Translations under genes and position numbers: made by a program
The notes under the pieces: generated by a model
Told to the model about the DNA's origin: nothing
What the model saw: the letters and a program-made list of their open reading frames with translations, nothing else
Database searches by the model: none
Source: Shinella yambaruensis
Lineage (GTDB): Bacteria; Pseudomonadota; Alphaproteobacteria; Rhizobiales; Rhizobiaceae
Assembly (NCBI RefSeq): GCF_022899355.1
Contig: NZ_JALJCK010000013.1
Location: 124,001-188,000, forward strand
Direction: 5' to 3'
Length of the DNA: 64,000 nucleotides
In this document: positions 18,999 through 32,450 of the stretch, one piece after another
Layout of the letters: each line of letters starts with the position of its first letter
Numbering within the stretch: the stretch's first letter is position 1

Positions 18999-19025
18999 GA
19001 TGTCCTCATTGGGGAAGAAAATGGC

Positions 19026-20156
19026 TCAGCGGTACTGCCGCCGGTAGCGTTGGCCGAGGCCGGTCAGGATTTCGTAGGCAATGGTGCCGGCATCGCGCGC
19101 CACGTCCTCAAGGCCCTGGTTGGGGCCGAGGATCTCGACGCGGCTGCCGAGCGTGAGGCGGCCCTCCGGCAGGGCGGAGATGTCGATCGTGATGCTGTCC
19201 ATCGACACGCGCCCGACGATGGGCAGTCGCACGCCGTCGCAATAGGCGGCGCCCCGGCCCGAGAGGCTGCGGGGCAAGCCGTCGGCATAGCCCGCGGCGA
19301 TGGTGGCAAGGCGCGCCGGACCGGCCGTGACATGGCTGGCGCCGTAGCCGACGCGCGTGCCGGAGGGCACGCTGCGGGTCTGCACCACGGCGACGTCGAG
19401 GCTGACGACCGGCTCCATCGGGTTCGCCCGGCCGGCGGTCGGCGCGCCGCCATAGAGCGCGATGCCGGGGCGGGCAAGCACGCCGTGATAGGCCTTGCCG
19501 AGAAAGATGCCGCCCGAATTGGCAAAGCAGACGTCGAGGCCGGGAAATTCCGCCGCAACGCGCTCCATCTCGGTGCGCTGGTCTTCGTTCTGTTCGCTCT
19601 GCGCATCGTCGGCGGAGGCGAGGTGGCTCATCAGGAACAGGACGTCGATGCCGCCGGCGCTGACGAGGCCGGCAAGCGCCGCGCGCTCCTCCGGCGGCAC
19701 GCCGAGGCGCGACATGCCGGTGTCGAATTGCAGCCCCGCCGGCAGCGTGCGGCCGAGGGCCTTCGCCATGCCGCTCCACGCGTGCCACTGTTCCAGCGAA
19801 TTGACGACCGGTACGATGTTGTCGCGGGCACAGGCGTTTTCGTTGCCGGGCTGCAGGCCGTTCAGCACGAAGACCGCGGCGTCGGCCGCCAGAAGCGGGC
19901 GCAGGCGAAGCGCCTCGACGAACTGCGCGACGAAGAAGTGGCGGCAGCCATGGGCGTAGAGTTTCTCGGCCACCCAGCCGGCGCCGAGCCCGTAGGCATC
20001 GGCCTTGACGACGGCAGCCGCGCGCGCCGGGGCGACCTCGGCGGCGAGCTTTTCATAGTTGCGGGCGAGCGCCCCGAGATCGATGCCGAGATAACCCGAT
20101 GCGCCGTCGATCACGGTCGTTCCGCCGGTCCTGTCCCGTAGTATGCCGCCGTCCAT
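19026..20156 (-). CDS. alr: Alanine racemase, catabolic (DadX-like)
   Basis: 376 aa. The PLP lysine lies in VVKADAYGLGAG (about residue 39). The second catalytic base is the Tyr of RVGYGASHV (about 260), and a C-terminal SMDSITIDI stretch is typical of the family. It interconverts L- and D-alanine in the cytoplasm. Operon position upstream of dadA and a divergent Lrp-type gene indicate the catabolic DadX role, although sequence alone does not separate it from a biosynthetic Alr. GGAGGGGG lies 6 nt before the ATG. Confidence 0.92.
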   Translation of the reverse strand: MDGGILRDRTGGTTVIDGASGYLGIDLGALARNYEKLAAEVAPARAAAVVKADAYGLGAGWVAEKLYAHGCRHFFVAQFVEALRLRPLLAADAAVFVLNGLQPGNENACARDNIVPVVNSLEQWHAWSGMAKALGRTLPAGLQFDTGMSRLGVPPEERAALAGLVSAGGIDVLFLMSHLASADDAQSEQNEDQRTEMERVAAEFPGLDVCFANSGGIFLGKAYHGVLARPGIALYGGAPTAGRANPMEPVVSLDVAVVQTRSVPSGTRVGYGASHVTAGPARLATIAAGYADGLPRSLSGRGAAYCDGVRLPIVGRVSMDSITIDISALPEGRLTLGSRVEILGPNQGLEDVARDAGTIAYEILTGLGQRYRRQYR

Positions 20157-20281
20157 CCCAAGCCCCCTCCGTTGCGCGAAGCCTAGTGAAACGATCGTGA
20201 AATTGCCGAGGAAACAGCGATTGATTATTGCGTCAAAGCATGATTTTTGAACGAAACGACCACGATCTGGAATGATCTGCC

Positions 20282-20746
20282 ATGGCCGCCCTCGACGCGA
20301 TCGACCGCAACATCCTCCGGCTCCTGCGGCTTGATGCGCGCATGAGCAATGCCAGCCTTGCGGCCGATGTCGGCCTTTCCCCGTCCGCCTGCCTTCGCCG
20401 GATCAAGCTGATGGAGCAGGCGGGCGTCATTCGCGGCTACACGGCGCTGGTGGACACGTCGAATGTCGAGGCGAGCATCGCCGTCATCATCAACATCACG
20501 CTGGAGCGACAGACGGAGGACCATCTCGACCGCTTCGAGGCGGCGGTGCGCAAGCATCCGGAAATCCGCGAATGCTTCCTGATGACGGGCGGTTCGGACT
20601 ACCTGCTGCGCGTCGAGGTGGCCAATGCGGGCGAGTTCGAGCGCATCCACAAGGAAATCCTCTCGGCCATGCCGGGTGTCTCGCGAATCCATTCGAGCTT
20701 CGCGATCCGCAACGTGCTGGCGACGCGGCCGCGGGGGCGGCGATAG
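20282..20746 (+). CDS. Lrp/AsnC-family transcriptional regulator
   Basis: 154 aa. N-terminal helix-turn-helix (DRNILRLLRLDARMSNASLAADV, then SPSACLRRIKLME) and C-terminal RAM/AsnC ligand domain (VRKHPEIRECFLMTGGSDYLLRV). It is transcribed divergently from alr-dadA with 125 nt between starts, so it is the probable alanine-responsive activator of that operon (DadR/BkdR-like). Length and domain order are normal. Confidence 0.88.
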   Translation: MAALDAIDRNILRLLRLDARMSNASLAADVGLSPSACLRRIKLMEQAGVIRGYTALVDTSNVEASIAVIINITLERQTEDHLDRFEAAVRKHPEIRECFLMTGGSDYLLRVEVANAGEFERIHKEILSAMPGVSRIHSSFAIRNVLATRPRGRR

Positions 20747-20761
20747 GCGCCATCTCGGGCG

Positions 20762-21511
20762 TCAGGTCCGGCCGCCGTAGTATTTCTCCGCGATGCCGCG
20801 GGCGGCGGCGGCGGCCTTGCGGCCGATCTCGTGCATGCGGGCCATGTCGGCGCGCGCGGTCGGCGCCGCCACCGCCAGCGCGCCCATCGGCCGCCCGCCG
20901 GGCGTGAGGATCGGCGCTGCGGCGCTGATGACGCCGATCTCGAAGCCCTGCTGGCTGATCGAATAGCCCCGCTCCACCGTTTCGCGCAGGAGCGTGCGCA
21001 CGGCGCCCGCATCCGTGGCCGTATGGGCGGAAAAGCGCTCCAGCGGCCGCGCCAGCGCACGGTCGATCTCGCCGGGCGGTAGGAAGGCGAGATAGGCGAG
21101 CCCCGAAGCGGTGGCATGGAAGGGCAGCACGGCCCCGGGATCGACGATCACGCGGTGCGCCTGCGCGGAATCCTCCACATGGATGGTGGAGAGCCGCCCG
21201 CCGGAAAATTCCGACAGGTGCACCGTCTCGCCGGCCTCTTCCGCCAGCGCCTTGACGAAGGGGGCGGCCACGGCGACGAAGGGGAAACGCGCCTGGCGCA
21301 GGCGCGCCAGCCGGACGGGTGCCGCGCCGAGACGGTAGCGGCGCGTCTCCTCGTCCTGTTCCACGAAGCCGTGTCTTTCCAGCTCCACCAGAAAGCGCCG
21401 CGCCGTCGCCTTGTCGAGCGCGGAAAGCCGCGCGAGGTCGCTGAGGCCGATATCCTTGTCGAGTTCGGAAATCAGGTCGAGGAGGGAAAGGGCCTTTCCG
21501 ATGGTGCTCAT
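20762..21511 (-). CDS. IclR-family transcriptional regulator
   Basis: 249 aa. N-terminal winged helix (IGKALSLLDLISELDKDIGLSDLARLSALDKATARRFLVEL, shown here only to mark residues 3-43) and C-terminal IclR effector domain with GLAYLAFLP near 145 and SISQQGFEIGVISAAAPI near 195. The ATG at 21511 has GGAG 6 nt upstream; the earlier TTG at 21547 has no comparable signal. It is divergent from the APC permease operon and sits beside a GGTTCA-N5-TGAACC palindrome repeated at the decarboxylase promoter, so it is the candidate regulator of the whole island. Confidence 0.87.
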   Translation of the reverse strand: MSTIGKALSLLDLISELDKDIGLSDLARLSALDKATARRFLVELERHGFVEQDEETRRYRLGAAPVRLARLRQARFPFVAVAAPFVKALAEEAGETVHLSEFSGGRLSTIHVEDSAQAHRVIVDPGAVLPFHATASGLAYLAFLPPGEIDRALARPLERFSAHTATDAGAVRTLLRETVERGYSISQQGFEIGVISAAAPILTPGGRPMGALAVAAPTARADMARMHEIGRKAAAAARGIAEKYYGGRT

Positions 21512-21600
21512 GCTGCGCTCCGCGGCGTTGTGTCTGTCTTCTCGCAAGGAGCCAGTTCCCGCTTTCTGCCTTTCCTGTTCCGCACGCGCGACATATCGAG

Positions 21601-21681
21601 ATACTTAACATGAGAAATAACTTGACGGCGGAACTGGCTTTTGCAAATCTATAATTAAAATACTGGTTCAAATATTGAACC
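21601..21681 (+). promoter_or_regulatory. Conserved promoter/operator module A (permease operon)
   Basis: Ordered blocks: ATACTTAACATG at 21601, TAACTTGAC at 21618-21626, TTGCAAATCTATAAT at 21641-21655, and the 17-bp palindrome GGTTCA-N5-TGAACC at 21665-21681. The same blocks at nearly the same spacing occur on the minus strand at 26618-26537, before the decarboxylase. The palindrome is the best candidate for the IclR-family operator. The blocks are directly visible; which protein binds is inferred. Confidence 0.75.
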
Positions 21682-21781
21682 TCAAGGAAAATGTTTCGTG
21701 GGAACCGCCGTCGCCTCGGCACGGCATCGGACAAGCGGCTGCCGGACGCATGAAGGCGGCCGCCAGGATGGGAGCAAGATC

Positions 21782-23233
21782 ATGACAGAACACAGCGTGC
21801 CGCCCGGCGGCGCGAACCAGTTGCGCAAGAACAGCCTCGGCGTCGGGGCGGTCACATTCCTCGTCGTCTCGGCGGCCGCGCCGCTGACGGCGGTTGCCGG
21901 CGGCGTGCCGCTGTCGATGATGCTGGGCAACGGCCCGGGCATTCCGCTGACCTTCGCCTTCGTGACGACGGTGCTGCTGCTCTTCGCTATCGGCTATGTC
22001 GCCATGGCCCGGCATATCAGCAATGCCGGCGCCTTCTATGCCTATACGGCGCAGGGCCTCGGCGGCCTTGCCGGCGGCGCCGCGGCGCTCGTCGCCATCC
22101 TCGCCTACAATGCCATGCAGATCGGCGTCTTCGGCCTGTTCGGCGCCGCCACGGCCGGCTTCCTCGCCGGCTACGGCCTCGACCTGCCCTGGTGGGTCTG
22201 GACCTATATCGGCATAGCCCTCGTCGCGGTCTTCGGCTATCGGCGAGTGGATTTTTCCGCCCGCGTGCTCGCTGTGCTCGTCGTGCTGGAATATCTCGTC
22301 GTGCTGGTCATAGACGCCGCCATCCTCGTGAAGGGCGGCGACAGCGGCCTTTCCGCCGCGCCCTTCACGCCGTCGGCCTTCTTCTCGGGCACGCCGGCCA
22401 TCGGCATCCTGTTCTGCTTTGCCGCCTTCATCGGCTTCGAGGCGACGACCATCTACAGCGAAGAGGCCCGCGAGCCGGAAAAGACCGTGCCGCGCGCCAC
22501 CTACATCTCCGTTCTGATCATCGGCCTCTTCTACATGCTGACCTCCTGGCTGATGGTCAACGGCGCGGGCGTCGACAAGCTGGTGCCGGAAATCCAGGGC
22601 CTCGCCGACCCGACCACCTTCCTCTTCGGCCTGGCGGACCGCTATGTCGGCGGTGGCATCACTACCATCATGAGCATCCTCTTCATCACCAGCCTCTTTG
22701 CCGGCGTCGTCGCCTTCCACAACGGCGTCGCCCGCTATCTCTACGTCGCCGGCCGCGAGGGCCTGCTGCCCAGAGCGCTCGGCGTCACCCATCCGGTGTT
22801 CCAGAGCCCGCATGCCGGCTCGGTCGTGCAGACGGTGATCGCCGTCGCCGTCGTCGCGCTCTTCGCCTTCACAGGGCAGGATCCGGTGCTGGCACTGTTC
22901 TCCTGGCTCACCAATGTCGGTACGCTGGCGATCATCCTGCTGATGGCGCTGACCGCCTTCTCCATCGTCGCCTTCTTCGGCCGCAATCCGGGCCTCGAAG
23001 GCAACCGCGTCGTCACGACGGTTCTGCCGGTGCTGACGGGCCTTATCCTCCTGGCGCTGGTCTTCTACATTGCCACGAATTTCGGCGCGCTGGCCGGTGC
23101 GGAGGGGGCGCTTGCGGTGTTCCTGCCGGGCCTCGTGCTGATCGCCGCGATCATCGGCCTCCTGTGCGCCTTGCGCCTGAAGGCGGGCGATGCCGGTGCC
23201 TTTGCCCGGCTCGGCGTCCGCCGGGAAGTGTGA
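21782..23233 (+). CDS. APC-superfamily amino acid permease
   Basis: 483 aa with twelve hydrophobic segments. N-terminal GVGAVTFLVVSAAAPLTAVAGGVP is the substrate-site helix of APC family members close to APA/ABT-type amino acid permeases. FIGFEATTIYSEEAREPEKTVPRATY (about residues 215-240) is the diagnostic TM6 to loop segment. It imports an amino acid or amine across the inner membrane with protons. It is first in an operon with the aldehyde dehydrogenase, 46 nt away. Confidence 0.88.
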   Translation: MTEHSVPPGGANQLRKNSLGVGAVTFLVVSAAAPLTAVAGGVPLSMMLGNGPGIPLTFAFVTTVLLLFAIGYVAMARHISNAGAFYAYTAQGLGGLAGGAAALVAILAYNAMQIGVFGLFGAATAGFLAGYGLDLPWWVWTYIGIALVAVFGYRRVDFSARVLAVLVVLEYLVVLVIDAAILVKGGDSGLSAAPFTPSAFFSGTPAIGILFCFAAFIGFEATTIYSEEAREPEKTVPRATYISVLIIGLFYMLTSWLMVNGAGVDKLVPEIQGLADPTTFLFGLADRYVGGGITTIMSILFITSLFAGVVAFHNGVARYLYVAGREGLLPRALGVTHPVFQSPHAGSVVQTVIAVAVVALFAFTGQDPVLALFSWLTNVGTLAIILLMALTAFSIVAFFGRNPGLEGNRVVTTVLPVLTGLILLALVFYIATNFGALAGAEGALAVFLPGLVLIAAIIGLLCALRLKAGDAGAFARLGVRREV

Positions 23234-23239
23234 GAATCC

Positions 23240-23261
23240 GGGTGGCGCTCCGGCGCCACCC
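23240..23261 (+). terminator. Intercistronic hairpin between permease and aldehyde dehydrogenase
   Basis: GGGTGGCGC-tccg-GCGCCACCC, a perfect 9-bp stem with a tetraloop, 6 nt after the permease stop and 18 nt before the next ATG. It is probably an mRNA-stability or attenuation element rather than a full stop. Confidence 0.55.
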
Positions 23262-23279
23262 GTCCTTGAAGGAAAGACC

Positions 23280-24758
23280 ATGCAGGAAAAGATCGAAGCG
23301 CTCCGCAACCTCGCCGTCGCGCCGCGGGCGCTGTTCATAAACGGTATCCGGCAGGACCCGGCGGATGGCGCGGTGCTGGATGTCGTCTCGCCCATCGACG
23401 GGCGCAGGCTGACGACCATCGCGGATGCCGGCGCGGAGGATATCGACCGGGCGGTGAAGGCCGCCCGCGTCGCCTTCGAAAGGGGCCGCTGGGCGAAGGC
23501 GGTGCCGGCCGAGCGCAAGCGGGTGCTGCTGAGGATCGGCGAGCTGATCGAGAAACATGCCCTGGAACTCGCCGTGCTCGGCGTGCGTGACAACGGCACC
23601 GAGATTTCCATGGCGCTGAAGGCCGAACCCGGCAGCGCCGCCGGCACGTTCCGCTACTATGGCGAGGCGATCGACAAGGTCTATGGCGAGATCGCGCCGA
23701 CGGCCGGCGACATCCTCGGCCTCGTCCACCGCGAGCCGGTCGGCGTCGTCGGTGCCATCGTGCCGTGGAATTTCCCGCTGATGATCGGCGCGTGGAAGAT
23801 TGCCCCGGCGCTTGCGGCCGGCAATTCCGTCGTGCTGAAGCCGGCGGAGGCCGCCTCGCTGACACTGCTGCGCCTTGCCGAACTTTGCGCCGAGGCCGGG
23901 CTGCCGGAGGGCGTGCTGAACGTCGTGACCGGCCGTGGCGCGGTGGCCGGGGAGGCGATGGGCCTGCATCCGGATATCGACGTGCTGGTCTTCACCGGCT
24001 CAGGCCCCGTCGGCCGGCGCCTGCTCGAATATTCCGCCCGTTCCAACCTGAAGCGTGTCTATCTGGAGCTCGGCGGCAAGTCGCCGAACATCGTCTTCGC
24101 CGACGCGCCGGACCTCGACCGCGCGGCCAAGGTCTCGGCCTATGGCATCTTCCGCAATTCGGGGCAGGTCTGCGTGGCCGGCTCGCGGCTGCTCGTCGAG
24201 CGCTCCATCGCGGAGGAATTTTCGCAGAAGGTGGCCGAGATCGCCGCCGCGATGACGGTCGGCGATCCGCTGCTGTTGACCACCGAGGCGGGCGCCGTCT
24301 CCAGCGAGGCCCAGCTCGGCAAGAATCTCGGCTTTGCCGAACAGGCGCTTTCCGAGGGCGCCAGGCTGCGCACCGGCGGCAAACGTGTCCTTGCCGAGAC
24401 CGGCGGCTTCTACATGCAGCCCACCGTCTTCGACGTCACGCCGGACATGACGCTCGCCCGCGAGGAGGTTTTCGGGCCGGTCCTCTCCATCATCCCCTTC
24501 GACAGCGAGGAGGAGGCCTTGCGCATCGCCAACGGTACGGATTACGGCCTCGCCTCGGCCGTGTGGACCGCCGACCTGTCACGGGCGCATCGCATGGTGC
24601 GCGGCATCCGCGCCGGCGTTGTGCATGTCAACACCTATGGCGGGGCCGACAACACCGTGCCGCTCGGCGGCGTTCGCCAGTCCGGCAACGGGCACGACAA
24701 GTCCCTGCACGCGCTGGACAAGTATCTCGACCTGAAGACGGCCTGGATCCAGCTCTAG
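23280..24758 (+). CDS. NAD(P)-dependent aldehyde dehydrogenase
   Basis: 492 aa, normal family length. PWNFPLMIGAWKIAPALAAGN (about 160-180), FTGSGPVGRRLL, the general-base Glu in LELGGKSPNIVF (about 263) and the nucleophilic Cys in SGQVCVAGSRLL (about 297) are all present. It oxidises an aldehyde to a carboxylate in the cytoplasm. It is closest in feel to gamma-glutamyl-gamma-aminobutyraldehyde or betaine aldehyde dehydrogenases (PuuC-like), so it may act on the aldehyde formed from an amine by the neighbouring PLP enzymes. Confidence 0.92.
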   Translation: MQEKIEALRNLAVAPRALFINGIRQDPADGAVLDVVSPIDGRRLTTIADAGAEDIDRAVKAARVAFERGRWAKAVPAERKRVLLRIGELIEKHALELAVLGVRDNGTEISMALKAEPGSAAGTFRYYGEAIDKVYGEIAPTAGDILGLVHREPVGVVGAIVPWNFPLMIGAWKIAPALAAGNSVVLKPAEAASLTLLRLAELCAEAGLPEGVLNVVTGRGAVAGEAMGLHPDIDVLVFTGSGPVGRRLLEYSARSNLKRVYLELGGKSPNIVFADAPDLDRAAKVSAYGIFRNSGQVCVAGSRLLVERSIAEEFSQKVAEIAAAMTVGDPLLLTTEAGAVSSEAQLGKNLGFAEQALSEGARLRTGGKRVLAETGGFYMQPTVFDVTPDMTLAREEVFGPVLSIIPFDSEEEALRIANGTDYGLASAVWTADLSRAHRMVRGIRAGVVHVNTYGGADNTVPLGGVRQSGNGHDKSLHALDKYLDLKTAWIQL

Positions 24759-24759
24759 A

Positions 24760-24898
24760 ACCGATCGACATTCAGTCCATGCCGGTCTGCAAATGGCGCT
24801 TTTCCGCGCTTCCGGTGCTCACATACGTTCAGTACGCTGTGCTCCGGGTCGCGGAAAACCACCATTTTCGCCACGGCCTGAACTGAATGTCGATCGGT
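24760..24898. repeat. RIME-like long intergenic palindrome
   Basis: The 141-nt gap between two convergent genes is a single large hairpin. The outer arms ACCGATCGACATTCAGT (24760-24776) and its perfect complement (24882-24898) enclose further paired blocks: ATGCCGG/GGCC, AAATGG/CCATTT and TTTTCCGCG/CGCGGAAAA. It has the size and symmetry of the Rhizobium intergenic mosaic elements dispersed in Rhizobiaceae genomes. It should also act as a bidirectional terminator. Confidence 0.7.
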
Positions 24899-24899
24899 C

Positions 24900-26312
24900 C
24901 TAGGCGTCTTCCAGCGAGCGGGCGATTTCCGTGATGACCGTGAAGGCGGTGTCCGCGTCGCCGCGGGTCATCTCGAACTGGCCGGCCTGGAAGCGGATGG
25001 CGATGCGGCCGTCGACGCGGGTCTGTGTCAGGTAGATGCGGCCATCGTCGTTGATGGCGTTGACGAGGGCGATATTGTGCCGGTCGGCCTCCGCGCCGCC
25101 CTTGTGGCGGAAAGAGAAGAGCGAGAGCACCGGCTCGCTGACGATCTCGAAATCCGGCTCGCCGGCAAGACGCTCCGCCAGTTCCCTCGACCAGGCGACG
25201 TGGTTGCGGATCATCGTGCGCAGCCCTTCGAGGCCGTGGTAGCGCAGCAGGAACCACAGTTTCAGCGCGCGGAAGCGGCGGCCGAGCGGCACGGACCATT
25301 CGGAATAGTTGATGATGCCGTCATGGCCGTGGGTCTTCAGGTATTCCGGCTGGATGGCCAGCGTGCGCACCTGGTCCTCGGGGCTGCGGATGAACTGCAC
25401 CGAGCAGTCGAAATTGGCGCCGAGCCATTTGTGCGGGTTGAAGACGATGGAATCGGCCGCCTCGACGCCCTCCCAGAGCTCGCGGAATTCGGGGCAGATC
25501 ATGGCCGAGCCCGCCCACGCGGCATCGACATGCAGGTAGAGGCCATGCGCCTTGGCCACTGCCGCCACAGCGCGGATCGGGTCGCAGGCGCCGATGGAGG
25601 TACCGCCGGTGCAGGCGATGACGCCGGCCGGGATGTGGCCAGCGGCACGGTCCGCGCGGATCGCGGCGTCGAGCGCCTCGGGGTCCATGCCGTTGAGGGG
25701 GCCCTTGGTCGGGATGCGCACGAGGTTCGCTTCGCCGATGCCGGCAATCCAGATCGCCCGGTCGATGGAGGTGTGCACCTGCTTCGACGCATAGACGCGC
25801 ACCGCCCCGTGCGCCGCCAGCCCCTCGCTGTTGCCTTTCCAGCCGAGCGCCTTCTCGCGTATGACCAGCACGGCGGCGAGCGTCGCGGTGGAGGCGGAAT
25901 CCTGGATGACGCCGGAAAAGCCGTCCGGCAGGCCGAGCGCCTGGCGCAGCCAGTCGACCACCCGCGTCTCGAGCTCGGTGGCGGCCGGCGAGGTCTGCCA
26001 GAGCATGCACTGGGCGGCGACGGAGGTGACGAGATAGTCGGCAATCACCGAAACGGGGGCGGCATTGGCCGGGAAATAGGCGAAGAAGCGCGGATGCTGC
26101 CAATGGGTGAGGCCATCGGGAATGATGCGCTCGAAATCCGCGAAGATCGCCTCCATCGCCTCGCCGTCTTCGGGGGGCGCACTGGCGATCTGCCGGGCGA
26201 TGTCGCCCGGCTTCGTCTGCGCCCGCACCGGCCGGTCGCGCAGGCCCGCGCGGTAGTCGGCGCCCCAGTCGGCGGCCGTTCGCGACCACTTGCGGAATTC
26301 TTCGCTGTCCAT
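24900..26312 (-). CDS. PLP-dependent group II amino acid decarboxylase (aromatic-type)
   Basis: 470 aa. HVDAAWAGSA (Asp contacting the PLP ring, about residue 270) and the PLP lysine in FNPHKWLGANFDCS (about 300) identify the DDC/TDC/glutamate-decarboxylase group. The N-terminal HWQHPRFFAYFPAN and SPAATELETRVVDWL are typical of aromatic-L-amino-acid decarboxylases. It removes CO2 from an amino acid to give an amine. CAGGAG precedes the ATG. Its promoter shares module blocks with the permease promoter, so amino acid import and decarboxylation are probably co-regulated. The substrate is unknown. Confidence 0.9.
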   Translation of the reverse strand: MDSEEFRKWSRTAADWGADYRAGLRDRPVRAQTKPGDIARQIASAPPEDGEAMEAIFADFERIIPDGLTHWQHPRFFAYFPANAAPVSVIADYLVTSVAAQCMLWQTSPAATELETRVVDWLRQALGLPDGFSGVIQDSASTATLAAVLVIREKALGWKGNSEGLAAHGAVRVYASKQVHTSIDRAIWIAGIGEANLVRIPTKGPLNGMDPEALDAAIRADRAAGHIPAGVIACTGGTSIGACDPIRAVAAVAKAHGLYLHVDAAWAGSAMICPEFRELWEGVEAADSIVFNPHKWLGANFDCSVQFIRSPEDQVRTLAIQPEYLKTHGHDGIINYSEWSVPLGRRFRALKLWFLLRYHGLEGLRTMIRNHVAWSRELAERLAGEPDFEIVSEPVLSLFSFRHKGGAEADRHNIALVNAINDDGRIYLTQTRVDGRIAIRFQAGQFEMTRGDADTAFTVITEIARSLEDA

Positions 26313-26681
26313 CTCTTGCTCCTGTCTGGCGCTACGCAGTTCTCGGTGTTCGTCCGTCGATTTGCAAGGCCCGTGAAGGGGCCTGCAATCCGAGCTTGCC
26401 GTGCGCGGTTTCCGCAGGGTATCCGCACGAATATATTTAACGCGTTAATAATTTTTTGGTGCCTGTCAAGCCCGCGACGGAGCATCTGTCGATGCGGCTG
26501 CGAGCGCCGCGGTTGCGACGGGAAAACTTATTTTATGGTTCAATATATGAACCAATGCTTCAAATATAGACTTGCAAGCGGCGGCACTTCCTGTCAAGTT
26601 AATTCGCATGTTAAGTATATTGGTCGCGACACCCGAAGAGCTGCTGCGGGCGGAGCCGGACTTAGCGGGAGGAGAACGGAA
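26313..26681. other. Divergent promoter region of the decarboxylase and the Tm-1/aminotransferase operon
   Basis: A 369-nt A+T-richer gap. Its minus-strand content is module B (separate entry). The plus-strand promoter for the 26682-32450 genes must lie at about 26560-26650; TATATT-like sequence occurs near 26616-26621, but no good -35 could be paired with it. No reading frame with recognisable content. Confidence 0.5.
26537..26618 (-). promoter_or_regulatory. Conserved promoter/operator module B (decarboxylase)
   Basis: Read on the minus strand it gives ATACTTAACATG, TAACTTGACA, TTGCAAGTCTATATT and the palindrome GGTTCA-N5-TGAACC (26553-26537). Order and spacing match module A at 21601-21681 (82 against 81 nt). 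The palindrome half-sites are identical; only the five central bases differ. It lies about 225-305 nt upstream of the decarboxylase start. Confidence 0.75.
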
Positions 26682-26897
26682 ATGCACGTCGACGACATGG
26701 CCCGGATGCCGCGGGGCTCTTTGTCCACACCGGATATCGAGATGGAGCTGACGCAGGCCGTGCCGGCCCGCTATCCTCCGGCGGGAGACCGTCTTGGCAG
26801 CGAGACGGCATGCCACGTCTTGCGCCGGCCGGATGCACCTTCGGGGCAGGTCAGGCGATTTGTCCCGCTGTTCGTATCGAGGAGGAATGGTCGATGA
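26682..26897 (+). CDS. Small uncharacterised protein or translated leader
   Basis: 71 codons starting at an ATG with a strong GGGAGGAGAACGGAA site. The stop overlaps the ATG of the Tm-1-like gene in an ATGA arrangement, so translation here would be coupled to the operon. No domain is recognised; the product has no membrane segment and is rich in Arg and Pro toward the C-terminus. Codon use looks native in the first half and poorer in the second. It could be a true small protein, a coupling leader, or the eroded start of a lost gene. Confidence 0.45.
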   Translation: MHVDDMARMPRGSLSTPDIEMELTQAVPARYPPAGDRLGSETACHVLRRPDAPSGQVRRFVPLFVSRRNGR

Positions 26898-28150
26898 GCG
26901 CGAGCGCCCGTCTGCCCCATATTCTGGTGATCGGCACCGGTGATACCAAGAGCGAGGAGCTCCTGTTCATGGCCGATGTCATCGGCAAGGCCGGGGGCGT
27001 TCCCGTTCTGGTCGATGTCAGCGTGCTCGGCGACCCGCCCTATGTGCCGGACCATTCCAAGCACGACATCGCCGCCGCGGCCGACACCACCATGGAGGCG
27101 ATCACCGGCAGCGGCGACGAGAACACCGCCATGGCGCTGATGGCAAAGGGCGCCGCGGCGCTGGTGCGCCGGCTTTCGGAGGCGGGGGAGGTGGACGGCA
27201 TGATCGCGCTCGGCGGCTCGCTCGGCACGGACCTCGCCCTCGACGTCGCCGCCGTGCTGCCGCTCGGCGTGCCGAAGTTCATCGTCTCCACCATCGCTTA
27301 TTCCCATCTCCTGCCGCCGGAGCGCATCGCGCCCGACCTGATGATGATCCTGTGGGCCGGCGGGCTCTACGGCCTCAACCCGATCTGCCGGGCGGTGCTG
27401 TCGCAGGCTTCGGGCGCGGTCGTGGGCGCAGCCAAGGCCGGCGAGCGGCCCGCCCGCCAGCGCCCGCTGGTGGGCATGACCTCGCTCGGCTCCTCCTGCC
27501 TCAGCTACATGAAGCTGCTGAAGCCGGAGCTGGAGCGGCGTGGCTACGACGTCGCCGTGTTCCATTCCACCGGCATGGGCGGGCGCGCCTATGAGGCGGT
27601 GGCGGCGCAGCGGGGCTTTGTCGCCGTCTTCGATTTCTGCATCCAGGAGGTGACCAATGCGCAGAACGGCTCTGTCGCCGTCTCCGGGCCGGACCGTCTG
27701 GAAAATGCCGGCCGCGCCGGCATTCCGCAGATCGTCGCGCCCGGGGCCGTCGACATGGTGGACATGCCCGCCTGGCAGGAGACGCCGGACCGCTTCGCCG
27801 GCCGGCCCTATCATGCGCACAACCGGCTGATCGCCTCCGTCACCGTCTCGCCCGACGAGCGCCGTGCGGTCGCCCGCGTCGTCGCCGCCAAGCTGGAGGG
27901 GGCGAGCGCCCCCGTCGCCTTCCTGCTGCCGACGAAGGGCATCCAGGAATGGGACCGGGAGGGCGAGCCGCTGCACGAACCGGACGCGCTGGAGGCCTTC
28001 CTCGACGAGATGCGCCGGGCCGTGCCGGCCTCCGTCGCCTTCGAGGAGGTCGACGCGCATATCAACGCCCCGGACTTTGCCGAAAGAGCGCTGGAAATCT
28101 TCGACCGCTGGGTGGCCGAAGGCATCGTCGAGAAGGGACAGGCGGCATGA
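26894..28150 (+). CDS. Tm-1-like ATP-binding family protein (UPF0261)
   Basis: 418 aa, normal for UPF0261. N-terminal ILVIGTGDTKSEELLFMADVI, GGSLGTDLALDVAAVLPLGVPKFIVST and the C-terminal LLPTKGIQEWD block (about residues 340-350) are family marks. Plant Tm-1 binds a viral replicase and ATP; bacterial members have no settled biochemical role and often occur in catabolic clusters. GGAGGAATGGTCG precedes the ATG. It overlaps the next gene by 4 nt, so it belongs to the amine island. Confidence 0.85.
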   Translation: MSASARLPHILVIGTGDTKSEELLFMADVIGKAGGVPVLVDVSVLGDPPYVPDHSKHDIAAAADTTMEAITGSGDENTAMALMAKGAAALVRRLSEAGEVDGMIALGGSLGTDLALDVAAVLPLGVPKFIVSTIAYSHLLPPERIAPDLMMILWAGGLYGLNPICRAVLSQASGAVVGAAKAGERPARQRPLVGMTSLGSSCLSYMKLLKPELERRGYDVAVFHSTGMGGRAYEAVAAQRGFVAVFDFCIQEVTNAQNGSVAVSGPDRLENAGRAGIPQIVAPGAVDMVDMPAWQETPDRFAGRPYHAHNRLIASVTVSPDERRAVARVVAAKLEGASAPVAFLLPTKGIQEWDREGEPLHEPDALEAFLDEMRRAVPASVAFEEVDAHINAPDFAERALEIFDRWVAEGIVEKGQAA

Positions 28151-28800
28151 CAGAGGCCAGGCGGGCATTGATCCTCGATTTCGGCGGCGTCGTCACCCGC
28201 ACGCTGTTCGAAACGCATGACATCACCGAGCGGGCGCTCGGCCTGCCGGCCGGCACGCTGACCTGGCGTGGTCCCTTCGACCCGGCCAGCGATCCGCTCT
28301 GGCAGTCGATGCAGGCGCGAGAAATCACCGAGCGCGACTACTGGATGATGCGCACGCGGGAGGTCGGCGCGCTGCTCGGCGAGGATTGGACGGACATGAA
28401 GACCTTCGTGCAGCGGGCGCGCGGGGCCGATCCCGAACTCGTTTTGCGCCCCGAGGCGCGTGATGCGATCCTGAAAGCCAGCGAAGCCGGGCTGAAGCTC
28501 GCCATCCTCTCCAACGAGCTCGACCTCTTCTACGGCGAGAGCTTCCGCAGGCGCTTCCCGCTGATCGACCTTTTCGACGTCATCGTCGATGCGACATACA
28601 CGAAGATCCTGAAGCCCGATCCGCGCGCCTATGAACAGGTGCTGGCGGAACTCGCTCTCAGCCGTGCCGACTGCGTCTTCGTCGACGACCAGAAGAAGAA
28701 CATCGAGGGCGCGGCGGCCGTCGGCCTTCCCCATGTGCATTTCGACGTGACGCGGCCTGCGGAAAGTTATGCGCAGGCGCTGAACATGCTTGGACTTTGA
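28147..28800 (+). CDS. HAD-superfamily hydrolase-like protein
   Basis: 217 aa. HAD motif I would be ILDFGGVVTR (about residues 8-17): the nucleophile Asp is present but the second Asp is replaced by Gly-Val, as in YihX/epoxide-hydrolase-N-terminal-like HADs. Motif II ILSNE, motif III K in KILKPDPRAYE and motif IV CVFVDDQKKNIEGA are intact. Relatives with DFGGV remove phosphate from sugar or amine phosphates. ATGA overlap with the upstream gene and 11 nt to the next suggest it handles a phosphorylated intermediate of the same pathway (inference). Confidence 0.85.
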   Translation: MTEARRALILDFGGVVTRTLFETHDITERALGLPAGTLTWRGPFDPASDPLWQSMQAREITERDYWMMRTREVGALLGEDWTDMKTFVQRARGADPELVLRPEARDAILKASEAGLKLAILSNELDLFYGESFRRRFPLIDLFDVIVDATYTKILKPDPRAYEQVLAELALSRADCVFVDDQKKNIEGAAAVGLPHVHFDVTRPAESYAQALNMLGL

Positions 28801-28811
28801 AAGGATATCCC

Positions 28812-30176
28812 ATGCGCGATTCCAACTTCCTGATCGAGAACAATGCCCGTCATCTCTGGCATCCCATGGCGCATCCGGCGGAAATGCAGGCCAAGCCCCC
28901 GCGCATCATCAATGCGGGCGAGGGCGTTTCTGTGGTGGATATCCATGGCAAGACGGTGCTGGATGCCGTCGGCGGCCTGTGGAACGTCAACCTCGGTTAT
29001 TCCTGCGAGCCGGTGAAGAAGGCGATCCGCGACCAGCTCGACGAGCTGCCCTATTATTCCACCTTCCGCGGCACCACCAATTCGCCGCTGATCGAACTGT
29101 CCTATGAACTGGCGGCGTTCTTCAGGGAGGACGGGCTCACCCGGGCCTTCTTCACCTCGGGCGGCTCGGATTCCGTCGATACGGCGCTGCGGCTCGCCCG
29201 TCAGTTCCACAAGATCAACGGCCAGCCGGAGCGCACCAAGTTCGTGGCGCTGAAGAAGGGCTATCACGGCACGCATTTCGGCGGCGCCTCGGTCAATGGC
29301 AATGCCAATTTCCGCCGCAACTACGAGCCGCTGCTGCCCGGCGTGTTCCACCTTGCAGCGCCCTATCCCTATCGCAACCCCTTCAACACGGCCGATCCGG
29401 TGGAGATCGCCCAGGCGATCGCCCGCCAGTTCGAGGACGAGATCGCCTTCCAGGGCGCCGACACCATCGCCGCCTTCATCATGGAGCCGGTGCTCGGCGC
29501 CGGCGGCGTCATCGTGCCGCACGAGACCTTCATGCCGCTGATGCGCGCGATCTGCGACAGGCACGGTATCCTCCTCATAGCCGATGAGGTCATCACCGCC
29601 TTCGGCCGCACCGGGGCCTGGACCGGTTCGCGCGGCTTTGGCGTCAAGCCCGACATGATGACCACCGCCAAGGCGATCACCAACGGCTACTTCCCCTTCG
29701 GCGCGGTGATGATCGCGGACAAGGTCGCCGGTGTCTTCGAAGCCAACAGGGATTCCTTCGGGACCATCGGCCACGGCTACACCTATTCCGGCCATCCGGT
29801 CGGCGCGGCGGCGGCGCTGGCAACGCTGAAGGAAACCGCCCGGATCGACACAGCCGCCAATGCCGCCGCGCGCGGCGCCGAGCTGATCGCCGGGCTGGAA
29901 GACCTGAAGGCGAAGCACGAACTGGTCGGCGACGTGCGCGGGAAGGGGCTGATGGCCGCGCTGGAGCTCGTCTCCGACCGCCGGACGAAGAGCGCGGCCG
30001 CCAAGGACGTGGTGCAGAAGGTCTATGATGCCGCCTATGACGAGGGCGTGATGGTCCGCACGTCGGGCGCCAATGTCATCCTCTCGCCGCCGCTCGTCAT
30101 CACGGCGGCCGATGTGCAGAAGATCGTCTCGGCGCTGGATGCGGGGCTGTCGGCAGCACGAGGGGTGTCGCCATGA
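28812..30176 (+). CDS. Class III (omega-amino) aminotransferase
   Basis: 454 aa. Fold type I class III signature with GVIVPHETFMPLM, LLIADEVITAFGRTG and the PLP lysine in TTAKAITNGYFPFGAV (about residue 286). N-terminal HLWHPMAHPAEM resembles putrescine-pyruvate (SpuC) and beta-alanine-pyruvate aminotransferases. It would move an amino group from an omega-amino compound to pyruvate or a 2-oxo acid, giving an aldehyde for the aldehyde dehydrogenase at 23280. The ATG at 28812 is preferred over an upstream TTG because AAAGGA lies just before it. It overlaps the next gene by 4 nt. Confidence 0.9.
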   Translation: MRDSNFLIENNARHLWHPMAHPAEMQAKPPRIINAGEGVSVVDIHGKTVLDAVGGLWNVNLGYSCEPVKKAIRDQLDELPYYSTFRGTTNSPLIELSYELAAFFREDGLTRAFFTSGGSDSVDTALRLARQFHKINGQPERTKFVALKKGYHGTHFGGASVNGNANFRRNYEPLLPGVFHLAAPYPYRNPFNTADPVEIAQAIARQFEDEIAFQGADTIAAFIMEPVLGAGGVIVPHETFMPLMRAICDRHGILLIADEVITAFGRTGAWTGSRGFGVKPDMMTTAKAITNGYFPFGAVMIADKVAGVFEANRDSFGTIGHGYTYSGHPVGAAAALATLKETARIDTAANAAARGAELIAGLEDLKAKHELVGDVRGKGLMAALELVSDRRTKSAAAKDVVQKVYDAAYDEGVMVRTSGANVILSPPLVITAADVQKIVSALDAGLSAARGVSP

Positions 30177-31456
30177 CCGATGTGCAGGCCCTGCGCGCCC
30201 GCCGCGAGCGGCTGCTCGGCCGCAACATGTCGCTCTTCTACGATGACCCGGTGCATCTGGTGAGGGGCGAGGGCGTCTGGCTGTGGGATGCGGACGGGCG
30301 ACGGTATCTCGACTGCTACAACAATGTGCCGCATGTCGGCCATTGCCATCCGCGGGTGGTCGAGGCGATCTACCGGCAGGCGTCGATGCTCAACACCCAT
30401 ACACGCTACCTGCACGAGGGCATTCTCGACTATGTCGAGCGGCTGACGGCGACCTTCCACAGGAGCCTCGACACGGCGATCCTCACCTGCACCGGCAGCG
30501 AGGCCAACGACGTGGCCCTGCGCATGGCGCAGGCGGTGACCGGCCGGACGGGCGTCATCGCCACCGACTTCACCTATCACGGCAACACGACGGCGGTCTC
30601 GCAGCTCTCGACGCGCATGCCGCCGGTCGGCGGCTATGGCGGGCATGTGCGCCATGTGCCGGCGCCGGATGCCTATCGTCCGCTTGGCGGAGAGGGCGGA
30701 GAGGCCTTCGCCGAGGCCTGGGCCGCCACGGTGGAGGCGGCGATCGCCGCGCTGCAGGAAAGCCCGTTCGGCTTCTCCGCGCTGATCATCGACCCCTTCT
30801 TCGCCAATGAGGGTTTTCCGGACCTGCCGGCGGATTTCCTCGCACCCGCCGTCAAGGCTGTCAGGAAGGCCGGCGGCCTTGTCATCTGCGACGAGGTTCA
30901 GCCCGGTTTCGGCCGCACCGGCACGCATTTCTGGGGGCATCAGAAGGCCGGCATCCTCCCCGATATCGTCACCCTCGGCAAGCCGATGGGCAACGGCCAT
31001 CCGGTCGGTGGTGTCGTGGCGGCATCCGAAACGCTGAATGCCTTCCGCAAGGCGTTCCGCTACTTCAACACCTTCGGCGGCAATCCGGTCTCCTGCGCGG
31101 CGGCCATGGCCGTTCTCGACGTGCTGGAGGAGGAGAAGCTGCAGGAGAACGCGCTTCATGTCGGCACCCATGCCCGCGAGGGGCTGCAGAAGCTGGCGGA
31201 CAAGCATGGGCTGATCGGCAATGTGCGCGGCAGCGGCCTGTTCTTCGGCGCGGAACTGGTGCTCGACCGGCAGGAAAAGACGCCGGCCTCGGACATCGCC
31301 ACGCGGGTGATCAACGGCATGCGCGAGCGCGGCGTCTTGATGGGCAAGCTCGGCATCCACCAGAACGCCACTAAGATCCGCCCGCCTATGCCCTTTTCCC
31401 GGGAGAATGCCGACCTGATGCTGGCGGTGCTCGACGACGTGCTGAGCGGGCTGTGA
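30173..31456 (+). CDS. Class III PLP enzyme, ethanolamine-phosphate/hydroxylysine phospho-lyase-like
   Basis: 427 aa. VGHCHPRVVEAIYRQ, NTHTRYLHEGILDYVERLTATF and the PLP-lysine segment LGKPMGNGHPVGGVV (about residue 268) match the AGXT2L1/AGXT2L2 branch. Characterised members of that branch are not transaminases but lyases that remove phosphate and ammonia from O-phosphoethanolamine or 5-phosphohydroxylysine. The next gene encodes a kinase of exactly the type that makes such substrates. ATGA overlap upstream; 4 nt to the kinase. Branch assignment is by pattern recognition. Confidence 0.84.
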   Translation: MTDVQALRARRERLLGRNMSLFYDDPVHLVRGEGVWLWDADGRRYLDCYNNVPHVGHCHPRVVEAIYRQASMLNTHTRYLHEGILDYVERLTATFHRSLDTAILTCTGSEANDVALRMAQAVTGRTGVIATDFTYHGNTTAVSQLSTRMPPVGGYGGHVRHVPAPDAYRPLGGEGGEAFAEAWAATVEAAIAALQESPFGFSALIIDPFFANEGFPDLPADFLAPAVKAVRKAGGLVICDEVQPGFGRTGTHFWGHQKAGILPDIVTLGKPMGNGHPVGGVVAASETLNAFRKAFRYFNTFGGNPVSCAAAMAVLDVLEEEKLQENALHVGTHAREGLQKLADKHGLIGNVRGSGLFFGAELVLDRQEKTPASDIATRVINGMRERGVLMGKLGIHQNATKIRPPMPFSRENADLMLAVLDDVLSGL

Positions 31457-31460
31457 CGCG

Positions 31461-32450
31461 ATGGACGACATGATCGCGGCCCTGACGGCCCGGGCGGCGG
31501 GCGCCCTTCTTCATTGGAACCTGCCGGACCAAGTGCCCGAACTCTTGAAATACCGCGAGAACGCGGTCTTCAAGGTTCACCTGCGCGACGGCCGGCCGGC
31601 GGCCTTGCGGCTGCACCCCCCGGCCTATCATTCGCCGGCGGCGCTCGCCTCGGAACTCGCCTTCATGGCGGCGTTGCGCGAAAAAGGCATCGCCGTGCCG
31701 CTGCCCATCGCCGCGCCGGACGGCAGCCTGCTTGCCGCCTTGCCATCTCCGGCGCCGGGCGAACCACATTATGCCGACCTGATCGACTGGATGGAGGGCG
31801 AGCCACTCGGCGATACGGGCGCTCCGCTTCCCCGGGGCGGCCGGGATTTGCCGGCGCTCTTTGGCGCCATCGGCCGGGAGATGGCGCGCCTGCACGATGC
31901 GGCCGATGCCTTCGTGCGGCCGGCCGGGTTCGAGCGTCCAGCCTGGGATGTCGAGGGGTTGCTGGGCGAAGCGCCCTTCTGGGGCCGGTTCTGGGATTGC
32001 CCGGTCATCACGCCGGTGCAGCGGGATGCCCTGGCGCGCCTGCGCGCCCGCCTCCTGCCGCGGTTTTCGGCGCTGGCGCCGGGGCTGGACTACGGCCTGA
32101 TCCATGCCGACCTGGTCCGCGAAAATGTCCTCGTGGCGGGAGGCGCCGTCGCCTTCATCGATTTCGACGATTGCGGCTTCGGCTTCCGGCTGTTCGATCT
32201 GGCCACCGCGCTGCTGCGCAACCGGCACGAACCCGACTATCCGCAATTGCGTGCGGCCCTGCTGGAGGGATATGCCGCCGTCCGGCCGCAGGCGGAGGCG
32301 GAGTTCCGGCACTTGCCGCTGTTCCTGCTGCTGCGCGCGCTCACCTATATCGGCTGGGCGGCGGCGCGGCCGGAGCTTCCGGACAATCCCGCGCGCCTGC
32401 AGCGCTATCTTGGCGACATGGAGACGCTTGCGCGGGATCTCGGCCTTTGA
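31461..32450 (+). CDS. Aminoglycoside phosphotransferase/hydroxylysine-kinase-like small-molecule kinase
   Basis: 329 aa. APH/choline-kinase fold: ATP lobe with ENAVFKVHLRDGRPAALRL, catalytic loop IHADLVRENVL (about residues 214-224) and metal-binding AFIDFDDCG (about 231-239). Close in layout to hydroxylysine kinase (AGPHD1) and homoserine kinase II-like proteins. It would phosphorylate a hydroxyl on an amino compound so that the preceding phospho-lyase-like enzyme can eliminate the phosphate. Last gene of the operon; a convergent AraC gene follows 10 nt later. Nucleotide donor unknown. Confidence 0.85.
   Translation: MDDMIAALTARAAGALLHWNLPDQVPELLKYRENAVFKVHLRDGRPAALRLHPPAYHSPAALASELAFMAALREKGIAVPLPIAAPDGSLLAALPSPAPGEPHYADLIDWMEGEPLGDTGAPLPRGGRDLPALFGAIGREMARLHDAADAFVRPAGFERPAWDVEGLLGEAPFWGRFWDCPVITPVQRDALARLRARLLPRFSALAPGLDYGLIHADLVRENVLVAGGAVAFIDFDDCGFGFRLFDLATALLRNRHEPDYPQLRAALLEGYAAVRPQAEAEFRHLPLFLLLRALTYIGWAAARPELPDNPARLQRYLGDMETLARDLGL

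What the first reader, a model, noticed from the sequence alone, without database searches (positions are those of the whole stretch)
20762..32450. Candidate undescribed amino acid/amine pathway: decarboxylase, kinase and phospho-lyase in one IclR-linked island
Seen: an IclR regulator, APC permease, aldehyde dehydrogenase, group II PLP decarboxylase, Tm-1-like protein (UPF0261), HAD protein, an omega-aminotransferase, an AGXT2L-like class III enzyme and an APH/hydroxylysine-kinase-like kinase. The last genes are joined by ATGA overlaps or 4-11 nt gaps. Known: AGXT2L1/AGXT2L2 with a dedicated kinase remove a hydroxyl as phosphate with loss of ammonia (ethanolamine and hydroxylysine breakdown). 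Inference: an imported amino acid is decarboxylated to a hydroxy-amine, phosphorylated, eliminated to an aldehyde, then oxidised or transaminated. UPF0261 and the HAD protein have no assigned step in any such route.
Basis: partly seen in the sequence, partly recalled or inferred. Interest (0 to 1): 0.72.

Follow-up and report, generated by a model that had tools for sequence, protein, structure and literature searches.

The report
Plant-associated bacteria's aromatic amine breakdown island
This stretch of DNA looks like a set of genes that lets soil and root bacteria eat aromatic amines, probably including octopamine- or noradrenaline-like ones whose hydroxyl group is first tagged with phosphate and then removed; no experiment has tested it yet.

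Summary
The genes are confirmed; the proposed pathway is partly right. The class III enzyme at 30173-31456 falls in the phospho-lyase clade, not among transaminases, and its kinase is in 75 of 80 relatives' loci. The decarboxylase is in 10 of 80, on the opposite strand, and not a conserved part.

The key evidence lies outside the window. In 35 of 80 relatives the island adjoins homoprotocatechuate (hpa) genes; 0 of 27 loci of other phospho-lyase clades have any. The host genome has its hpa cluster on another contig. So the aldehyde made is most likely 4-hydroxy- or 3,4-dihydroxyphenylacetaldehyde, and the kinase/lyase substrate a beta-hydroxylated phenolic ethylamine (octopamine/noradrenaline type). 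The kinase's best solved match is an aminopropanol kinase, acting on a smaller beta-amino alcohol.

UPF0261 co-occurs with hpaD in 15 of 17 genomes (2.2 expected), also without the lyase; one solved relative holds acetovanillone. Substrates are inferred, not shown. New variant of a known kind.

The parts
20762..21547 (-). IclR regulator, probable island regulator (ATG start at 21511 more likely)
   Evidence: Pfam IclR_C and HTH_IclR; in 53 of 80 relatives' loci
21782..23233 (+). APC permease, probable amine or amino acid importer
   Evidence: Pfam AA_permease_2; 26 of 80; other loci carry TctABC-type transporter genes
23280..24758 (+). Aldehyde dehydrogenase, inferred to oxidise the aryl-acetaldehyde to the arylacetate
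   Evidence: Aldedh; best NCBIfam matches PuuC, betaine-aldehyde and phenylacetaldehyde (StyD) dehydrogenases, all below cut-off; 54 of 80
24900..26312 (-). Group II PLP decarboxylase of the aromatic amino acid type; optional part
   Evidence: PDB best match DOPA decarboxylase 7xin, 393 bits; 10 of 80; with hpa genes in 6 of those 10 and in L082-L084
26894..28150 (+). UPF0261 (Tm-1-like) protein, step unknown; tied to hpa rather than to the lyase
   Evidence: NF002676 714.7 bits over cut-off 556; 58 of 80; 15 of 17 genomes with it have hpaD; relative 9mpy with bound acetovanillone
28147..28800 (+). HAD-IA hydrolase, step unknown
   Evidence: Pfam Hydrolase; 38 of 80; ATGA overlap with UPF0261
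28812..30176 (+). Class III omega-aminotransferase, inferred tyramine/dopamine-type amine transaminase
   Evidence: PRK07481 782.7 bits over cut-off 575; PDB omega-transaminase 5lh9 430.7 bits; groups with transaminases; 56 of 80
30173..31456 (+). Class III PLP phospho-lyase (LYASE), inferred to release phosphate and ammonia from the phosphorylated beta-hydroxy amine
31461..32450 (+). APH-fold small-molecule kinase (KIN), inferred to phosphorylate the beta-hydroxyl
   Evidence: Pfam APH; HxDxxxxN in 76 of 76; best solved match 6ef6 by sequence and fold; 75 of 80

Best explanation
A plasmid-type catabolic island for phenolic (aromatic) biogenic amines that feeds the homoprotocatechuate (hpa) meta-cleavage pathway. 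Two entries lead to one aldehyde. Entry 1 (inferred): the kinase phosphorylates the beta-hydroxyl of an octopamine- or noradrenaline-type amine, H2N-CH2-CH(OH)-aryl, and the PLP phospho-lyase removes phosphate and ammonia, giving 4-hydroxy- or 3,4-dihydroxyphenylacetaldehyde. Entry 2 (inferred): the omega-aminotransferase makes the same aldehyde from tyramine or dopamine, which the optional decarboxylase can make from tyrosine or DOPA. The aldehyde dehydrogenase oxidises it to (di)hydroxyphenylacetate, which HpaBC and HpaDEFGHI carry to pyruvate and succinate semialdehyde (end products recalled). IclR regulates; APC (or TctABC) imports. Shown here: gene identities, clade membership, conservation and linkage. 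Not shown: any substrate or reaction.
For: LYASE in the phospho-lyase clade; PLP Lys270 and Asp240 in 81 of 81, KIN catalytic motif in 76 of 76. KIN in the stretch in 75 of 80 named relatives, directly downstream of LYASE in 74 of them. Two or more hpa genes in the fetched stretch in 35 of 80 (31 of the 59 that are at least 20 kb long); 30 of these 35 have at least one of hpaB/D/G/H. 0 of 27 loci of other phospho-lyase clades show any hpa gene at the same thresholds, although 11 of the 27 lie in genomes that have hpaD elsewhere. 11 nearest-neighbour junction types between island and hpa genes, 11 of the 35 loci being KIN then hpaF on one strand 60-71 nt apart. In Rhizobium etli pRetNXC12e the set runs IclR-UPF0261-HAD-AT-LYASE-KIN-hpaF-hpaE-hpaD-gabD-hpaG-hpaH-hpaI (hpaF and hpaG named by me from their products). 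hpa identities by NCBIfam in L066: HpaD, HpaE, HpaH, HpaR over cut-off. Own genome has hpaB,C,D,E,F,G,H,I,R on contig C2. KIN's best solved match is an aminopropanol kinase.
Against: No substrate was tested. In the host genome the island and the hpa cluster are on different contigs (C4 and C2). 45 of 80 relatives show fewer than 2 hpa genes in the fetched stretch (28 of these 45 at least 20 kb long). Five of the 35 rest on hpaE/F/R only (L126, L149, L165, L167, L168). HpaB, HpaC and HpaG are below their NCBIfam cut-offs and HpaF had no match. Two of 8 sampled genomes of the order with this LYASE clade (G256, G280) have no hpaD at the threshold; G256 has hpaE/F/R beside the island, G280 hpaG/hpaH beside its decarboxylase on another contig. 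Assigning the kinase/lyase branch to beta-hydroxylated amines is inference from the chemistry of the families. The second-best fold match of KIN, amicoumacin kinase, is close behind in fold (TM 0.75 against 0.81) though not in sequence.
Confidence: 0.68

Rival explanations
1. One reading: an imported (beta-hydroxy) aromatic amino acid is decarboxylated to the hydroxy-amine, then phosphorylated and eliminated.
For: In the window and in the three Shinella loci of the scan (L093, L094, L096) the decarboxylase sits inside the island; across 297 genomes it co-occurs with UPF0261 in 14 of 17 and with the lyase clade in 5 of 8. A decarboxylase of the DOPA/tyrosine type could in principle take beta-hydroxytyrosine or droxidopa.
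Against: Decarboxylase in 10 of 80 relatives' loci, on the opposite strand here; in G198, G150 and G256 the lyase clade occurs without it (E 1e-60); it is in hpa clusters of G202 and G093, which show no lyase at E 1e-130; in 7 loci of genus g3 (L075-L081) it stands in an unrelated conserved context (families read in L078 only).
Confidence: 0.1
2. The kinase and lyase degrade a small amino alcohol (ethanolamine or 1-amino-2-propanol) or hydroxylysine, and only share regulation or a plasmid with hpa.
For: Characterised phospho-lyases of the family act on phosphoethanolamine and phosphohydroxylysine (PMC8154272, passages and reference list); the nearest solved kinase is named aminopropanol kinase.
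Against: The genome holds two other lyases of the family, one grouping with ETNPPL (L092, 100/95) and one in another clade (L002), so such roles may be taken; hpa linkage 35 of 80 against 0 of 27; the clade has invariant residues N212, F215, P216, R292 in 81 of 81 that are rare in 23 other lyases.
Confidence: 0.15
3. The class III enzyme is an ordinary transaminase and the kinase is an unrelated antibiotic-type phosphotransferase.
For: Public annotation names it 'aspartate aminotransferase family protein'.
Against: Tree and PDB scores; kinase with the lyase in 75 of 80.
Confidence: 0.03

Closest known systems
ETNPPL (AGXT2L1) / PHYKPL (AGXT2L2) and A1RDF1-type class III phospho-lyases (PDB 6tor, 5g4i)
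   Same: Same clade, same catalytic lysine and NNVxHVGH stretch, paired with a small-molecule kinase
   Different: Separate subclade (22 rows, 100/100) with invariant residues of its own, linked to hpa genes; substrate presumably an aryl amino alcohol
Microcompartment-associated aminopropanol kinase (PDB 6ef6)
   Same: Best kinase match by sequence (134 bits) and fold (TM 0.81); kinase for H2N-CH2-CH(OH)-R
   Different: 29% identity; predicted R is a phenol ring, not methyl; microcompartment shell genes were not searched for
Homoprotocatechuate (hpa) pathway fed by tyramine/dopamine
   Same: hpa genes by NCBIfam and by public annotation
   Different: Adds a kinase/phospho-lyase entry for beta-hydroxylated amines, and UPF0261 and HAD proteins of unknown role. 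Growth of Pseudomonas aeruginosa on octopamine and noradrenaline through (di)hydroxyphenylacetate is recalled (Cuskey and Olsen, 1980s; not read)
UPF0261 protein Saro_1862 of Novosphingobium aromaticivorans (PDB 9mpy, acetovanillone bound)
   Same: Same family, 171 bits, 32% identity in the Foldseek match; bound ligand is a phenol
   Different: Its pathway was not looked up; its paper was not found or read. TM-score to the model (0.58-0.59) is lower than that of plant Tm-1 chains (0.66-0.76), although its E-value and sequence score are better

Membership tests
Class III PLP phospho-lyases (ETNPPL/PHYKPL/A1RDF1) | Groups with the phospho-lyases rather than with transaminases | tested here: met
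   47-row clade 100/100 against 10 transaminases; bits 411.6/354.4 against 195.9. The place of 5g4i inside the clade is unresolved (long branch)
Class III PLP phospho-lyases (ETNPPL/PHYKPL/A1RDF1) | PLP lysine and aspartate kept | tested here: met
   K270 and D240 in 81 of 81
Class III PLP phospho-lyases (ETNPPL/PHYKPL/A1RDF1) | Releases phosphate and ammonia from a phosphorylated amino alcohol | not testable with these tools
   Needs enzyme assay
Class III transaminase (for 30173-31456) | Groups with transaminases | tested here: not met
APH-fold amino alcohol kinases | APH fold and HxDxxxxN catalytic motif | tested here: met
   Pfam APH; 76 of 76; fold match 6ef6
APH-fold amino alcohol kinases | Phosphorylates a beta-amino alcohol | not testable with these tools
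   Needs enzyme assay
Microcompartment-associated aminopropanol utilisation | Shell proteins in the cluster | not tested
   No shell-protein search was made
Homoprotocatechuate (hpa) pathway island | hpa ring-cleavage genes in the host genome | tested here: met
   HpaD, HpaB, HpaH homologues at 85, 89 and 76% to L066; HpaD over its cut-off; hpaB,C,D,E,F,G,H,I,R in L090
Homoprotocatechuate (hpa) pathway island | Island linked to hpa in the host genome | tested here: not met
   Island on contig C4, hpa on C2; linked in 35 of 80 relatives
UPF0261 / Tm-1 family | Both UPF0261 domains | tested here: met
   PF06792 and PF23189
UPF0261 / Tm-1 family | TIM-barrel (TBST, PF09370) partner, a frequent companion per PMC5028733 | tested here: not met
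   No PF09370 in the host genome, one UPF0261 gene
Aromatic amino acid decarboxylase (group II) | Closest to DOPA/tyrosine/tryptophan decarboxylases | tested here: met
   7xin 393 bits, 6eei 334; diaminobutyrate and glutamate types at about 131 and 113 or less. Substrate not testable here

The most novel reading that the evidence does not exclude
A dedicated kinase/phospho-lyase route for beta-hydroxylated phenolic ethylamines (octopamine, noradrenaline, synephrine) in rhizobia and roseobacters, in which UPF0261 is a catalytic partner acting on the phenolic compound, perhaps with the HAD protein as a put-on/take-off phosphate pair as in acetovanillone breakdown. This would give the bacterial UPF0261 family a metabolic role, possibly its first (the work behind PDB 9mpy, which I could not read, may have proposed one).
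Probability: 0.2. Interest if true: 0.78.

Novelty: new variant of a known kind. Interest (0 to 1): 0.6.

Why it matters
If right, it explains how rhizobia, roseobacters and relatives could remove the side-chain hydroxyl of octopamine/noradrenaline-type amines, names the genes, and gives simple tests. It also re-labels an enzyme that public annotation calls 'aspartate aminotransferase family protein', and ties the uncharacterised UPF0261 family to phenol catabolism by two independent lines (co-occurrence with hpaD; a relative crystallised with acetovanillone).

Tried and rejected
Rejected: the linear decarboxylase-first route as the general reading. Rejected: lyase as ordinary transaminase. 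Considered less likely: an ethanolamine, aminopropanol or hydroxylysine route. A stop reported inside hpaH of the host proved to be the normal end of an open frame. The first gene caller, trained on window genes, failed on several loci (L063-L065, L083, L084); re-trained per locus, and still imperfect in, for example, L090, L096 and L135, so presence counts use tblastn, not gene calls. A PHROGs scan of the kinase found nothing. Literature: ten searches, seen as listings of titles and abstract beginnings, two of them cut (20 of 58,434 listed; 15 of 27); none of the listed entries names a kinase/phospho-lyase route for aromatic amines. The library lacks most subscription journals, so this is weak evidence of absence. 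Papers opened: PMC8154272 (passages), PMC5028733 (passages), PMC9618137 (abstract and passages). Recalled, not read: Cuskey and Olsen on Pseudomonas aeruginosa, work on aminopropanol breakdown and the papers behind the 6ef6 and 5g4i structures; the name A1RDF1 for 5g4i is recalled too.
Full report
WHAT IS THERE. Units read from strands: IclR (-); APC-ALDH (+); decarboxylase (-); UPF0261-HAD-AT-LYASE-KIN (+); then an AraC gene and siderophore genes that seem to belong to the next region. The same order, with a lyase 98.8% identical, is on plasmid pbSHIWSC3 of Shinella sp. WSC3-e, so the window probably comes from a Shinella-like megaplasmid (inference).

WHAT THE CLASS III ENZYME IS. Its best solved relatives are a phospholyase (5g4i, 411.6 bits) and ethanolamine-phosphate phospho-lyase (6tor, 354.4 bits); the next scores 195.9. 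In a maximum-likelihood tree of 57 proteins the phospho-lyase clade (47 rows) separates at 100/100 from 10 transaminases of the host genome, including the neighbouring AT; the window clade (22 rows) is itself 100/100 (the position of 5g4i is unresolved because of a long branch). The PLP lysine and aspartate are kept in 81 of 81. N212, E213, F215, P216 and R292 are invariant in these 81 and occur in at most 10% of 23 lyases of other clades; E213 is, however, shared by 5g4i. The genome holds two further lyases of the family: a 1033-aa protein that matches the fusion family PRK06148 over its length and groups with 6tor, and an 867-aa protein of another clade whose first half matched nothing at the threshold used.

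THE KINASE. It has the APH fold, and HxDxxxxN in 76 of 76. By sequence (134 bits against 41 for the next) and by fold (E 1.0e-17, TM 0.81) its best solved match is 6ef6, titled aminopropanol kinase of a microcompartment; amicoumacin kinase follows closely in fold (TM 0.75). 1-amino-2-propanol is H2N-CH2-CH(OH)-CH3, the same arrangement as octopamine with a methyl in place of the phenol ring.

CONSERVATION. Presence in the fetched stretch at fixed identity thresholds: KIN 75 of 80 (directly downstream of LYASE in 74; missing in L154, L157, L161, L162, L164), UPF0261 58, AT 56, ALDH 54, IclR 53, HAD 38, APC 26, decarboxylase 10. KIN, ALDH, AT and UPF0261 are all present in 48 of 80. In 24 to 29 of 91 loci given to there are genes of three clusters that Pfam reads as TctA, TctB and TctC on one representative each, many of them in Rhodobacterales loci.

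THE LINK TO hpa. Neighbours in relatives are homoprotocatechuate genes: in L066, HpaR, HpaE, HpaD and HpaH score over their NCBIfam cut-offs; HpaB and HpaG are best matches below cut-off; HpaC is below cut-off and second to RutF; HpaF had no match at that threshold, but public annotation names the R. etli homologue 5-carboxymethyl-2-hydroxymuconate Delta-isomerase. Two or more hpa genes lie in 35 of 80 loci (31 of the 59 long ones); 30 of the 35 hold at least one of hpaB, D, G, H, while L126, L149, L165, L167 and L168 rest on hpaE/F/R only. All 35 have KIN. As control, 27 loci of other phospho-lyase clades (all 26 other-clade matches and L092; same order; 23 of them 20 kb, the others 18, 17, 15.5 and 4.6 kb) have none, and 11 of the 27 lie in genomes with hpaD elsewhere. 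Nearest island/hpa neighbours fall into 11 junction types, some of them variants of one layout (with or without hpaR between), but KIN-hpaF, KIN-hpaH, UPF0261-hpaR, AT-hpaR and ALDH-hpaR are different layouts. Linkage is seen in 11 of 24 named genera, 8 of 24 if the five weak loci are left out; 27 of the 80 loci carry no genus name. In the R. etli plasmid the genes run KIN-hpaF-hpaE-hpaD-gabD-hpaG-hpaH-hpaI on one strand. The host's own hpa genes are on another contig.

MODULES. Among 297 genomes of the order, this LYASE clade is in 8, UPF0261 in 17, hpaD in 39, the decarboxylase in 48; UPF0261 and hpaD together in 15 (2.2 expected), LYASE and UPF0261 in 8 of 8, LYASE and hpaD in 6 of 8, decarboxylase and hpaD in 17 (6.3 expected) (from; relatedness is not corrected for). 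Four genomes without the LYASE at E 1e-130 have IclR-APC-ALDH-UPF0261-HAD-AT about 1 kb from hpaB (L211-L214; what lies in that kilobase was not read). So the AT/UPF0261/HAD/ALDH module is found with hpa on its own, and KIN-LYASE looks like an added branch. The decarboxylase is with hpa genes in six named loci and in L082-L084, also where the LYASE was not found (G202, G093), which suggests tyrosine or DOPA as its substrate rather than a place upstream of the kinase. In seven loci of genus g3 of the sample (Mesorhizobium-like by the high identity of its hpa proteins to those of named Mesorhizobium loci) it stands in an unrelated conserved context.

MECHANISM (inferred). Beta-hydroxy arylethylamine -> (KIN, ATP) phosphate ester -> (LYASE) aryl-acetaldehyde + ammonia + phosphate -> (ALDH) (di)hydroxyphenylacetate -> HpaBC where needed -> homoprotocatechuate -> HpaD,E,F,G,H,I. 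Tyramine/dopamine join through AT. Six loci add a DAO/GCV_T flavoprotein (L063, L117, L125, L129, L152, L166), four of them with an FMN oxidoreductase too (L063, L125, L129, L152); if the flavoprotein removes N-methyl groups (recalled for such proteins), this would suit N-methyl amines such as synephrine.

UPF0261. A model of the window protein (mean pLDDT 92.5) has as best Foldseek E-value 9mpy, a UPF0261 protein of Novosphingobium aromaticivorans with bound acetovanillone; the sequence search agrees (171 against 139 bits for plant Tm-1). Against this, the TM-score to 9mpy (0.58-0.59) is lower than to the full-length Tm-1 chains (0.66-0.76), perhaps from a domain movement. The host has one UPF0261 gene and no TIM-barrel partner gene; a survey found UPF0261 in 97.4% of bacterial genomes that have that partner (PMC5028733, passages), which does not say how often UPF0261 stands alone. 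In acetovanillone breakdown a phenol phosphate is put on and later removed by a phosphatase (PMC9618137, abstract and passages; UPF0261 does not occur in its text). That UPF0261 and HAD do something similar here is speculation.

VERDICT. Known chemistry, apparently a new substrate class and context.

Noticed in passing
26894-28150 and relatives: UPF0261 of this subfamily tracks hpaD in 15 of 17 genomes and lies by hpa genes even where kinase and lyase were not found; a solved relative holds acetovanillone.
   Followed up: partly
L084, L120, L134, L140, L148, L151, L172: A P450 and a glutamine-synthetase-like protein, in some with a 2Fe-2S ferredoxin, sit near the island or near hpa/decarboxylase genes; perhaps a gamma-glutamylation route for amines (gene clusters; families read on one representative each).
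   Followed up: no
L063, L117, L125, L129, L152, L166: DAO/GCV_T flavoprotein near UPF0261, in 4 of the 6 with an FMN oxidoreductase; would fit N-methyl amines.
   Followed up: partly
L075-L081: In seven genomes of one genus the decarboxylase sits in an unrelated conserved context (families read in L078: ATP-grasp, Alpha-E, transglutaminase, DeoR, DAO, ABC).
   Followed up: partly
17748-20746: DadA, alanine racemase and Lrp genes lie next to the island, as in the Shinella plasmid; probably a separate D-amino acid unit.
   Followed up: no
32461 onward: An AraC gene and a TonB siderophore receptor follow, as in pbSHIWSC3, where nap nitrate reductase genes come next.
   Followed up: no
plasmid records: 79 plasmid records carry a lyase at E 1e-120 or better, 50 of them at 80% identity or more; 15 of the 79 are typed conjugative.
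   Followed up: no
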